Source of the DNA: a bacterium
GTDB lineage: Bacteria > Myxococcota_A > Bradymonadia > UBA7976 > UBA1532
Reading direction: 5' to 3'
Assembly (NCBI GenBank): GCA_030426085.1
Contig: JAUHYW010000039.1
Coordinates: forward strand, 1 to 64,000
Length of the DNA stretch: 64,000 nucleotides
Each line of letters starts with the position of its first letter. The first letter of the stretch is position 1. Under the pieces are notes generated by a model, which was not told the DNA's origin, ran no database searches, and saw nothing but the letters and a program-made list of their open reading frames with translations. The translations under genes were made by a program, and so were the position numbers. Positions 25,450 through 46,991 of this stretch are shown in pieces.

Positions 25450-26118
25450 ATGCTCGCGCTCTTCGAATCGACCCTGCTCGCCGTCGCCCGCCTCGAAGCG
25501 GCCGGCACCCGACCGCCGCGCCTCACCGAGCCCGGGCACGGCACCTGGCAGCGTTTCCGCCGCAACCTCGGCCCGCGCGACTTCGTCGAGCTGCTCTGCG
25601 AAGACCTCGCCGCGCCCTTCCCGCTGCCGTTCGACCTCGACCTCTGGGGCACCGATCCAGCGCCGCTCTCGGCGCTCGCCGACCTCGACGACACGACGGT
25701 CGAGGCCCTGATCGCCACCGCTTCGAGGGCCCCCGAGGCGCCCGTCGACGACTGGCTGCGCGAGCGGGCGAAAGCCCTCGGTCTGTCGAGCGGCGGGGTT
25801 TTCAGCGAGCTGCCCAAGGTCCAACCGCGATTCGACGTCCTCGAGCTGCCCGGCTCGGCCGGTCGAATCGCGGCGCGGCTGTGCAGCACCGACGAAACGC
25901 TGTCACTCGACCGCCAGTTCACGATCATCGCCGACACCCCGGCCGAGCGGGTGCTCGCCGGCCTGTGCACCGTAGCCCTCGGCGCGAACCGGCCGACCGT
26001 GCTCACCACCGACGAGCTGAAGGCGAAGCCCCGCCGCTTCGACCGCGTCTTCGGCCTCGCCGAGCATTCGCCGGCGCAGGCGCTGGCCGGCGACTTCGAC
26101 GAGGTCCGGCTGATTTGA
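25450..26118 (+). CDS. First gene of BREX operon, function unknown
   Basis: 222 aa, ATG start preceded by GGGAGGACG. Residues 1-100 are helical and acidic (FRRNLGPRDFVELLCEDLAAPFPLPFDLDLWG, LADLDDTTVEALIATASRA). The second half alternates strands and helices (FDVLELPGSAGRIAARLC, LDRQFTIIADTPAERVLAGLCTVALGANRPTVLTTDELK). No family was recognised. Its stop TGA overlaps the ATG of the next gene by one base (TGATG at 26116-26120). That coupling and the position before pglW make a BREX-related role likely. It does not resemble the DUF1788 protein BrxB. Confidence 0.65.
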   Translation: MLALFESTLLAVARLEAAGTRPPRLTEPGHGTWQRFRRNLGPRDFVELLCEDLAAPFPLPFDLDLWGTDPAPLSALADLDDTTVEALIATASRAPEAPVDDWLRERAKALGLSSGGVFSELPKVQPRFDVLELPGSAGRIAARLCSTDETLSLDRQFTIIADTPAERVLAGLCTVALGANRPTVLTTDELKAKPRRFDRVFGLAEHSPAQALAGDFDEVRLI

Positions 26119-44214: not shown

Positions 44215-46991
44215 GCGTCTTCCATCGCTTCCACCCGCGGCTGCGCGAGGCGATCGTGCATCGGCTGGGCTGGTCGAGCCTGCGCCCGGTTCAGGAGGAG
44301 TCCGGCGCGGCGCTGCTGGCCGGCGACAACGCCGTCGTGCTCGCGCCGACGGCGGGCGGCAAGACCGAGGCGGCGCTCTTCCCGACGCTGTCGATGCTGC
44401 TGAACGACGAGCCGGTGGGTGTCGGCGCGCTCTACATCGCCCCGATCAAGGCGCTGCTGAACAATCAGGCGGCGCGGCTGGGGCAATACACCGAGATGGT
44501 GGGCCTCGATCGCTTCGTCTGGCACGGCGACGTGGGCTCGGCGGCCCGCAAGGCATTCGTGCGCAGCCCGTCCGCGCTCTTGATGACCACCCCCGAGTCG
44601 CTCGAGGTGATGCAGATCTCGACCCGGGTCGACGCACGGCAACTCTTCGCCGATCTGCGGGTGGTGGTCATCGACGAGATCCACGCGCTGGCCGGCACCG
44701 ACCGCGGCGCGCACCTCGCGAGTGTCATCGAGCGGCTGGCAGCCATCAGTCGGCATGACATCCAGCGGGTAGGATTGAGCGCCACGGTGGGCAACCCGGA
44801 TGCCATCCTCGGATGGCTCCAGGGGTCGTCGAGACGGCCGGGGCGCGTCGTCGACCCGCCCTCGCAACCGCAGCCGCGCCACCTGCTGGTGATGCACGGC
44901 GAGCCGGCGTCGCTGGCGACCGACGCGGCGAGCATGGCCCGCGGGCGCAAGTCGCTCTTCTTCTGCCAGTCGCGGCGCATGACCGAGGCCGTCGCCGAGC
45001 GCATGAAGCACCGCGGGGTGCCGGTCTTCGTGCATCACAGCTCGATCAGCGCCGAGGAGCGCGCCCGGGCCGAGGCCGAGTTCCACCGCCATGATGACGT
45101 CGGGGGTGACGGCGCGTGCATCGTCTGCACCTCGACCCTCGAGCTGGGCATCGACGTGGGCGATCTCGACCGGGTGCTGCAAGCCGAGGCCCCGACCACC
45201 GTCGGTGCGTTCTTGCAGCGCATGGGGCGCACGGGCCGGCGGCCGAATCAGCCGGCGAATACCACCTTCTTCTGCGAGACCCACGAGGGCGTCTGGCTGG
45301 CCACCGCGCTGGTCGAGCTGGCCCGGCGGCGCTGGGTCGAGTCGGTTCCGCGGCTCGATCGCTGCTGGCCCGTGCTGGTGCATCAGCTCTTCGCGTTGAG
45401 TCTGGCCGAAAACGGAGTCGGCGCCGAGCAAGCCTGGAAGCAGCTGTCGGCGGTGCCCGACTTCGCCGGCATCCATCGGGCCGAGTTCAACCGGCTGGTG
45501 GGCTGGATGCTCGCCGACGGCGCCCTGCGCCTCGTCGGCGGGCGGCTGGTGCTGGGCGACAAGGCCGAGCGCCGCTTCGGGCGGCGCAACTTCATGGACT
45601 TCTACGCGGTCTTCCAGAGCCCCGAAACCTACCGGGTGCAAGACGGCGAGCGCCCGGTCGGCAACGTCGACCAGGACTTCGTCGACCGCCTGTCGCCCGG
45701 CGCGAGCTGCTTCCTGCTCGGCGGGCGCGCCTGGGCCGTAGAAGGCATCGACCACAACGACCGGACGATCGCCGTGCGCCCCGCGCCCGGCGGCATGGGC
45801 CCGAGCTGGAGCGGCTACCTGCCGTTGTTCCTGGGCTTCGAGGTCTGTCGGCAGATCCTGTGGCTGCTCGGCGGCCCGCCGGATCGTGCGCTGCCGCGCT
45901 ACCTGCACGAGAGCGCGAAGGCATCGCTGAGTGATTCCCGTGAGTCATTCGAAGTCGTGCTCGATCCCATCCGCGGGGGTGGCCTCGAGCGCACCGATGA
46001 GGGGCTGACGTGGTGGACCTTCGCCGGGGGGCGCATCAACAGCACGCTGCGCTACGCCCTCAGCGCGCTCGTGCCCGAGTGGACGGTCGTCACCGACAAC
46101 TTCGCCGTACGCATCCGCGGGACGAGTGTGCTCGCGACGACGCTGGATGACGCCATCGAACAGATGGCCGAGCCCGAGTTCTGGGAAGACGCCGAGCTGT
46201 GGCGGCGCATCGCCGATGGCTTGCCCGCGTATCGCCTCAGCAAGTTCCAGTCATTCGTGCCCGAGTGGGTCGAGCGGGAGATGCTGGCGACGCATCTGCT
46301 CGATCTGGCGGGCGCCTGGGGTGTCGTGGCCCAGTGGCAGGGTGTGGCCCGGCGCCCGGTCGCCGACATCGAGCCGGGCCGGCGCTCGCTGGACGAGCTG
46401 GCCTCGCAGGCATACGAGCCGCTGCCGCCGGGCCCGCCCCCGATGGATCCCGACCGCCCGGCCGCAGTCGAGCCGACGCTGCCGCTCCGCTGGGTGAAGA
46501 CCGACGAAGAGCTGCGCCTGCTGGCGGGCGACCTGGCGGGCTATCCAGTGATCGGGCTCGACGTTGAGACGACGCTCGGCACCCGCGCGCTGTGCCTGAT
46601 CCAGATCGCGGTGCGCGACTTCATCGCGCTGATCGACGTGCTCTGCGTCGACGACCTGAGCCCCCTGGCTCCGCTGATGGCCGATACGCAGGTACCGAAG
46701 GTTGTGCATTACGCGCCGTTCGAGACCGAGGTGATGAAGCGCTACGGCATGCCGCTGAGGAACGTCTTCGACACCTGCGCCGAGTCGCGCACGCAGCGGG
46801 GCAAGGTCGACGGCGGGCACAACCTCAAGGCGGTCTGCGCCCGCGAGTTGGGCATCGAGTTGGACAAGACCGACCAGACCAGCGACTGGACCCGTCGCCC
46901 GCTGGCGAACCATCAGGTGGCCTATGCGGCCATGGACGCCGAGGTGATGCTCAGCCTCTACGACATCTTCCGCGGGGGGCGGCTGCTGTGA
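44211..46991 (+). CDS. brxHI: BREX helicase BrxHI with C-terminal DEDD exonuclease domain
   Basis: 926 aa, GTG start overlapping the brxD stop. The N-terminal part is an Lhr-like superfamily 2 helicase: Walker A APTAGGKTE (45-53), DEIH (about 155), SAT in VGLSATVG, and the helicase motifs STLELGIDVGDLDRVLQ and QRMGRTGRR. After an Lhr-type middle domain, residues about 755-926 form an RNase D-like 3'-5' exonuclease: VIGLDVETT (DxE), VVHYAPFETEV, HNLKAVCAREL and YAAMDAEVML (YxxxD), a DEDDy set. The fusion would couple unwinding to trimming of nucleic acid. Whether all BrxHI proteins carry this domain was not known to me. Confidence 0.88.
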   Translation: MSVFHRFHPRLREAIVHRLGWSSLRPVQEESGAALLAGDNAVVLAPTAGGKTEAALFPTLSMLLNDEPVGVGALYIAPIKALLNNQAARLGQYTEMVGLDRFVWHGDVGSAARKAFVRSPSALLMTTPESLEVMQISTRVDARQLFADLRVVVIDEIHALAGTDRGAHLASVIERLAAISRHDIQRVGLSATVGNPDAILGWLQGSSRRPGRVVDPPSQPQPRHLLVMHGEPASLATDAASMARGRKSLFFCQSRRMTEAVAERMKHRGVPVFVHHSSISAEERARAEAEFHRHDDVGGDGACIVCTSTLELGIDVGDLDRVLQAEAPTTVGAFLQRMGRTGRRPNQPANTTFFCETHEGVWLATALVELARRRWVESVPRLDRCWPVLVHQLFALSLAENGVGAEQAWKQLSAVPDFAGIHRAEFNRLVGWMLADGALRLVGGRLVLGDKAERRFGRRNFMDFYAVFQSPETYRVQDGERPVGNVDQDFVDRLSPGASCFLLGGRAWAVEGIDHNDRTIAVRPAPGGMGPSWSGYLPLFLGFEVCRQILWLLGGPPDRALPRYLHESAKASLSDSRESFEVVLDPIRGGGLERTDEGLTWWTFAGGRINSTLRYALSALVPEWTVVTDNFAVRIRGTSVLATTLDDAIEQMAEPEFWEDAELWRRIADGLPAYRLSKFQSFVPEWVEREMLATHLLDLAGAWGVVAQWQGVARRPVADIEPGRRSLDELASQAYEPLPPGPPPMDPDRPAAVEPTLPLRWVKTDEELRLLAGDLAGYPVIGLDVETTLGTRALCLIQIAVRDFIALIDVLCVDDLSPLAPLMADTQVPKVVHYAPFETEVMKRYGMPLRNVFDTCAESRTQRGKVDGGHNLKAVCARELGIELDKTDQTSDWTRRPLANHQVAYAAMDAEVMLSLYDIFRGGRLL

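What the first reader, a model, noticed from the sequence alone, without database searches (positions are those of the whole stretch)
25450..46991. Complete type 2 BREX (Pgl) locus on a mobile island
pglW, pglX, pglY, pglZ, brxD and brxHI are all intact and in the established type 2 order, mostly with 1-4 base overlaps. Few type 2 loci are known with clear att boundaries, so this shows how the system moves.
Basis: partly seen in the sequence, partly recalled or inferred. Interest (0 to 1): 0.7.

Follow-up and report, generated by a model that had tools for sequence, protein, structure and literature searches.

The report
Type 2 BREX island with extra parts
A soil-type bacterium (very probably a myxobacterium relative) carries a complete anti-phage BREX type 2 system on a 33-kb integrated island with clear ends, and its operon holds two parts that the textbook system lacks: a separate BrxA-like DNA-binding protein and a PLD-type nuclease.

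Summary
All six type 2 BREX genes are intact, in order and on one strand (W-X-Y-Z-D-H, window 26927-46991), with catalytic motifs kept. The locus sits on an integrase island: an 88-bp direct repeat (1 mismatch, 85 bp exact) at 18423-18510 and 51757-51844 is the 3' end of an ABC1/UbiB-family kinase gene, with tyrosine integrases beside the left copy.

Gene A (25450-26118) is unknown but lies beside pglW in 8 of 20 other loci. Gene B (26118-26930) folds like BrxA (PDB 7ZGE, Z 13.6) and its family matches the BrxA family by profile comparison. An HKD/PLD nuclease gene (41432-42838) lies between pglZ and brxD. A+B loci form one fully supported PglW clade. The 2026 BREX survey describes type 2 BrxA as fused inside PglW; the passages read mention no stand-alone BrxA or HKD gene in type 2.

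No empty site was found: the congener lacks the BREX genes, but its two flanks are not adjacent. The founding Streptomyces Pgl system is already known to lie on an island. Verdict: real, a new variant of a known kind, of moderate interest. Function (methylation, phage resistance) is untested.

The parts
18423..18510 (+). attL-like direct repeat; 3' end (last 28 codons and stop) of the ABC1/UbiB-family kinase gene 17215-18510
   Evidence: 88 bp, 1 mismatch with 51757-51844; host gene 86% identical over its length in congener G001
51757..51844 (+). attR-like direct repeat, the displaced copy of the same gene end
   Evidence: only these two places in the own genome
18651..19814 (-). tyrosine integrase 1
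   Evidence: PF00589 117 bits; Arg, HxLR and Tyr motifs present
19594..20961 (-). tyrosine integrase 2, tandem paralogue
   Evidence: PF00589 125 bits; catalytic motifs present
20690..21172 (-). excisionase-like HTH_17 protein
   Evidence: PF12728 48 bits; phrog_66 excisionase
22268..22765 (-). XRE-type regulator
   Evidence: HTH_3 46 bits
24109..25359 (-). remnant of an OLD-family ABC-ATPase/TOPRIM gene: Walker A and Walker B parts are in different frames, middle missing
25450..26118 (+). gene A, 222 aa, unknown; conserved next to pglW
   Evidence: homologues beside pglW in 8 of 20 other loci; no library hit
26118..26930 (+). gene B, 270 aa, stand-alone BrxA-like protein
   Evidence: AlphaFold2 pLDDT 82.9; 7ZGE BrxA Z 13.6, rmsd 3.1, 187 aligned; family profile vs BrxA family 85.6%, 210 columns
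26927..31156 (+). pglW: NERD nuclease, pseudokinase, Ser/Thr kinase, RNAP alpha-CTD-like domain, C-terminal half
   Evidence: PADLOC PglW 806 bits; Pfam; motifs
31153..34983 (+). pglX adenine methyltransferase
   Evidence: BREX_2_MTaseX 906 bits, cut-off 400; DPTCGSG and NPPY
35012..38668 (+). pglY (BrxC) ATPase
   Evidence: PADLOC BrxC-PglY 1108 bits; Walker A
38665..41412 (+). pglZ, alkaline-phosphatase-fold nuclease/phosphatase
   Evidence: PADLOC PglZ 259 bits; metal-site motifs
41432..42838 (+). HKD/PLD-family nuclease gene between pglZ and brxD
   Evidence: PF13091 34.6 bits over cut-off; HPK...GSAN motif; phrog_28026 E 1e-71
42871..44214 (+). brxD ATPase
   Evidence: PADLOC BrxD 537 bits; PF10923 406 bits
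44211..46991 (+). brxHI SF2 helicase with C-terminal 3'-5' exonuclease-like domain
   Evidence: PADLOC BrxHI 1027 bits; PF01612 at 760-921
47064..50313 (+). island cargo: bpMoxR AAA ATPase (47064-48668) and VWA protein (48661-50313)
   Evidence: PF20030 200 bits, PF05762 43 bits
50341..51545 (+). island cargo: DUF6714 protein and a coiled-coil protein that looks secreted
   Evidence: PF20461 34 bits

Best explanation
The region is a 33-kb tyrosine-recombinase island inserted in the 3' end of an ABC1/UbiB-family gene; the island carries its own copy of that gene end, so the host gene stays whole. Its main cargo is a type 2 BREX operon of nine genes (A, B, pglW, pglX, pglY, pglZ, PLD, brxD, brxHI). 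Working model, inferred from family knowledge: PglX marks host DNA by adenine methylation; PglY, the BrxA-like protein B and PglW sense unmodified incoming DNA; PglZ nicks it; BrxD loads the BrxHI helicase-exonuclease; the HKD nuclease and the NERD domain of PglW are added or backup nucleases. Shown here: gene content, order, predicted fold of B, intact motifs, repeats at both ends. Inferred: every biochemical step, and mobility.
For: Family hits and motifs; gene boundaries; att repeats; integrases and excisionase; BREX genes absent from congener G001; B as BrxA fold, with the BrxA paper's own structural neighbours 3BHW, SspB and BpuJI also in the list; A+B clade in the PglW tree 100/100.
Against: No empty site: in G001 the ABC1 gene and the right-flank MoxR gene lie on different contigs with other neighbours. 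PglW scores below NCBIfam's equivalog cut-off (327 against 990). Gene B misses the Pfam BrxA model. The PLD gene is not found in any of 13 other loci where the pglZ-brxD junction is readable, so it may be a passenger.
Confidence: 0.85

Rival explanations
1. An ordinary type 2 BREX locus whose extra genes (A, B, PLD) are unrelated passengers that do not take part in BREX defence.
For: Accessory slots between pglW-pglX, pglX-pglY and pglZ-brxD vary freely in relatives, with Schlafen, OLD-like, RelA/SpoT or IrrE-type genes. The PLD gene has relatives beside a type I restriction system and on plasmids. B relatives occur as lone chromosomal genes.
Against: A-B-W are joined by 1-4 base overlaps; the A-B-W order is kept in four loci whose PglW proteins are only about 35-47% identical to this one; BrxA is a core BREX part elsewhere.
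Confidence: 0.3
2. The island is a decayed, no longer mobile relic; the BREX genes are chromosomal residents in practice.
For: Right flank neighbours differ in the congener; an OLD nuclease gene on the island is broken; no second copy of the BREX genes in the genus was seen.
Against: Repeat still 99% identical and both integrases keep catalytic motifs.
Confidence: 0.35
3. The flanking repeat is an assembly artefact of a fragmented (178-contig) draft.
For: Draft genome; congener contigs C22 and C49 end at the tandem integrases.
Against: Left copy completes an intact gene with 86% identity to the congener over its full length, right copy sits 1 bp from the MoxR stop where homology to the congener also stops.
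Confidence: 0.05

Closest known systems
BREX type 2 / Pgl of Streptomyces coelicolor (SCO6625-6642, GI-4)
   Same: PglW, X, Y, Z families; on a genomic island absent from a close relative (PMC1934918)
   Different: GI-4 has no listed flanking repeat; the window locus is one operon with brxD and brxHI and with genes A, B and PLD
Type 2 BREX as surveyed in Nucleic Acids Res. 2026 gkag035 (PMC12839542)
   Same: Six core genes, variable accessory nucleases within or beside the core
   Different: That text places the type 2 BrxA-like part inside PglW and reports HKD nuclease mainly as a BrxL fusion in type 1 or a helicase fusion in type 2 BR systems; here both are separate genes in a type 2 operon
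BrxA (DUF1819, PF08849; PDB 7ZGE, 3BHW)
   Same: Predicted fold of gene B over 187 of 199 residues; profile match along the full length
   Different: 17% identity; below Pfam detection; has about 30 residues beyond the 7ZGE match
DISARM DrmC / PLD-family nucleases
   Same: Single HxK...GSxN motif
   Different: DrmC match covers about 66 residues at 32 bits (cut-off 133), so not DrmC; full-length relatives are 'phospholipase D family' proteins on plasmids

Membership tests
BREX type 2 | PglX of the BREX-2 family | tested here: met
   NF033451 906 bits against cut-off 400; motifs intact
BREX type 2 | PglW with NERD, pseudokinase, kinase and C-terminal half | tested here: met
   PADLOC PglW 806 bits over 1395 of 1413 positions; Pfam domains. 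NCBIfam NF033442 matched but below its cut-off (327 of 990)
BREX type 2 | PglY/BrxC, PglZ, BrxD and BrxHI present | tested here: met
   PADLOC 1108, 259, 537 and 1027 bits
BREX type 2 | Gene order W-X-Y-Z-D-H on one strand | tested here: met
   with one extra gene between Z and D
BREX type 2 | System-dependent adenine methylation and phage resistance | not testable with these tools
   needs methylome and phage challenge
BrxA (gene B) | BrxA fold of HTH/winged-HTH modules | tested here: met
   Z 13.6 to 7ZGE and 12.2 to 3BHW; next match 9.1 (SspB)
BrxA (gene B) | Sequence membership in PF08849 | tested here: not met
   no Pfam BrxA hit at E up to 1 and no own-genome hit to PF08849; only profile-profile comparison links them
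BrxA (gene B) | DNA binding | not testable with these tools
   needs protein
BrxB (gene A) | Similarity to BrxB / PglW inactive STAND domain | tested here: inconclusive
   profile comparison 0.2% and 0.1% with a mixed BrxB set; structure model too poor (pLDDT 52)
HKD/PLD nuclease | PLD fold and HxK...GSxN motif | tested here: met
   PF13091 over cut-off; HPKIVWLRGVGAYIGSAN; the usual Asp after HxK(x)4 is Arg
Tyrosine-integrase genomic island | Integrase next to one of two flanking direct repeats at a gene 3' end | tested here: met
Tyrosine-integrase genomic island | Empty attB in a relative | tested here: inconclusive
   congener lacks the BREX genes but its flanks are not adjacent

The most novel reading that the evidence does not exclude
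A separate clade of type 2 BREX keeps its BrxA as a stand-alone protein in addition to the BrxA-like part described inside PglW, together with a conserved partner A, and this member has recruited an HKD nuclease into the core operon. The clade may preserve, or have rebuilt, the separate-gene arrangement seen in type 1.
Probability: 0.55. Interest if true: 0.55.

Novelty: new variant of a known kind. Interest (0 to 1): 0.42.

Why it matters
Type 2 BREX is little studied outside Streptomyces. A complete operon with defined island ends gives a natural unit to clone or delete. A stand-alone BrxA in type 2 would let one test whether BrxA works by itself or as a PglW domain, and the HKD gene is a candidate added cutter in a system whose cutting step is still poorly understood.

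Tried and rejected
Gene A as a degenerate methyltransferase or a BrxB/STAND domain: hhalign gave 12.7% against PglX, but in an unrelated N-terminal stretch, and under 1% against BrxB and the PglW C-terminus. It is left as unknown. Structural search with the gene A model was not done because its pLDDT is 52.

PLD gene as DrmC: rejected on coverage and score. PLD relatives inside other BREX loci: none in 13 readable junctions; two collection scans with the PLD protein found nothing.

Clean empty site in G001, G004, G006, G008, G011 and G012: not found. A rearrangement joining the two G001 junctions in the window genome was tested with contig C23 and not supported.

Distant direct repeats beside the related tandem integrases in G001: none of att quality within about 20-40 kb. 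No Rfam match and no tRNA in the window.

Full report
What was checked. ORF listing and start-site analysis give pglW 26927-31156, pglX 31153-34983, pglY 35012-38668, pglZ 38665-41412, brxD 42871-44214 and brxHI 44211-46991, all open and on the + strand. PADLOC scores are 806, 1166, 1108, 259, 537 and 1027 bits. NCBIfam's BREX-2 PglX model gives 906 bits against a cut-off of 400; its PglW model gives 327, under its cut-off of 990, so this PglW is divergent. Pfam finds the NERD domain, two kinase domains and the RNA polymerase alpha-CTD-like domain in PglW, Eco57I and DUF7008 in PglX, and a helicase plus a 3'-5' exonuclease-like domain in BrxHI. Key motifs are intact: DPTCGSG and NPPY in PglX, Walker A in PglY and BrxD, the metal-site motifs of PglZ, DEIH in BrxHI, ExK in the NERD domain and HRD in the second kinase; the first kinase is degenerate.

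The island. A direct repeat of 88 bp with one mismatch (85 bp exact) lies at 18423-18510 and 51757-51844, and nowhere else in the 10.1-Mb genome. It is the last 28 codons and stop of an ABC1/UbiB-family kinase gene, 17215-18510. The left copy completes that gene, which is 86% identical over its length in a congener, G001; the right copy is a displaced gene end 1 bp from a convergent MoxR gene. Next to the left copy are two tandem tyrosine integrases with catalytic motifs and an HTH_17 excisionase-like gene. This is the usual anatomy of an integrase island of about 33.4 kb. PglX and PglY are absent from G001 and no substantial BREX DNA was found there, although the integrases have about a dozen relatives in G001. 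A clean empty site was sought and not found: in G001 the two flanking genes lie on different contigs with other neighbours, so mobility is inferred from anatomy only.

The operon has three more genes. Gene A (25450-26118) has no family hit, but homologues stand beside pglW in 8 of 20 other loci, drawn from the 26 genomes of a 379-genome sample of the phylum that have a BREX-2 PglX. Gene B (26118-26930) overlaps A by 1 base and pglW by 4. Its AlphaFold2 model (pLDDT 82.9) matches BrxA, 7ZGE, at Z 13.6 with rmsd 3.1 over 187 of 199 residues, then the second BrxA, 3BHW, at 12.2, then SspB at 9.1 and, two places down, the BpuJI recognition domain at about 8. These are the same neighbours that the BrxA structure paper reports for BrxA itself (PMC9240713). 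Independently, a profile of 13 B-family proteins aligns with a profile of Pfam-BrxA proteins over 210 columns at 85.6% probability; with the four BREX-linked sequences alone it is 63.8%, and the control, gene A against BrxA, is 0.08%. Foldseek alone did not reach significance (best E 0.017, to 3BHW), and Pfam misses it. Loci with A and B (the window, G012, G213, G238) form one clade in a PglW tree with 100/100 support. B relatives also occur as lone chromosomal genes in other families of the phylum.

The third extra gene, 41432-42838, sits between pglZ and brxD with gaps of 19 and 32 bases. It has a PLD domain over the Pfam cut-off and a single HPK...GSAN motif. Its full-length relatives are a PHROG of unknown function, 'phospholipase D family' proteins on alphaproteobacterial plasmids, and two genes in the phylum: one beside a type I restriction system, one in another cluster. 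None lies in the 13 other type 2 loci whose pglZ-brxD junction could be read. In those loci the gaps between core genes hold other accessory genes: Schlafen, OLD-like ATPase, SF1-type helicase, RelA/SpoT-domain and IrrE-type proteins. The PLD gene is thus best read as one more accessory effector in a variable slot.

Comparison with what is known. The 2026 survey of BREX (PMC12839542) defines type 2 by PglW, BrxD and BrxHI plus the three shared parts, all met here. It states that the BrxA-like triple winged-HTH and the BrxB-like domain of type 2 are fused in PglW, that many loci hold accessory nucleases, and that HKD nucleases occur mainly as BrxL fusions in type 1 and helicase fusions in type 2 BR systems. 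A stand-alone BrxA-fold gene and a stand-alone HKD gene in a type 2 operon are not described in the passages read; its supplementary tables could not be read. Island location itself is not new: the S. coelicolor Pgl genes lie on the 30.4-kb GI-4, absent from S. lividans and listed without flanking repeats (PMC1934918). The window locus is better delimited.

Mechanism. Inferred from family knowledge: self-marking by PglX, sensing by PglY, PglW and the BrxA-like protein, nicking by PglZ, unwinding and trimming by BrxD and BrxHI, with the HKD nuclease and NERD domain as added cutters. None of this was tested. Confidence that this is a type 2 BREX locus on an integrase island: about 0.85 to 0.9; that gene B is BrxA-like in fold: about 0.85; that B and the PLD protein act in the BREX response: about 0.55 and 0.5.

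Host. The genome is 10.1 Mb in 178 contigs. No tool named the organism; the phylum is inferred to be Myxococcota from gene content, genome size and G+C content, and from one relative's record title naming a deltaproteobacterium.

Verdict. A real and complete locus, correctly identified in the main, and a new variant of a known kind.

Noticed in passing
window 24109-25359 (-): An OLD-family ABC-ATPase/TOPRIM gene next to the BREX operon is broken: its Walker A part and its Walker B part are in different frames and the middle is missing.
   Followed up: partly
window 18651-21172; L180-L196 (congener G001): The tandem integrase pair plus excisionase has about a dozen relatives in the congener, some as triples, some with 2-8 kb of other genes (restriction-like, TIR-like by eye) between integrase 1 and 2; two contigs end at them. 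No flanking repeats of att quality were found there.
   Followed up: partly
window 47064-51545: Island also carries a bpMoxR-VWA pair (a predicted conflict-system type), a DUF6714 gene and a coiled-coil protein downstream of brxHI, same strand.
   Followed up: partly
L126-L146: BrxA-like B-family proteins occur as lone chromosomal genes, in shared neighbourhoods, in other families of the phylum; three copies show in-frame TGA.
   Followed up: partly
L116, L117: Relatives of the PLD gene sit beside a type I restriction-modification operon (G363) and beside a radical-SAM/ATPase cluster (G171).
   Followed up: partly
window 53726-60412: Just outside the island, a 2228-aa protein made of Asp-rich repeats (about 66 nt and 1140 nt periods), probably a secreted calcium-binding repeat protein.
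   Followed up: no
L026, L027, L060, L062, L078, L079: In other type 2 loci the gaps between core genes hold Schlafen AlbA_2, OLD-like, RelA/SpoT-domain, SF1-type helicase and IrrE-type genes.
   Followed up: partly
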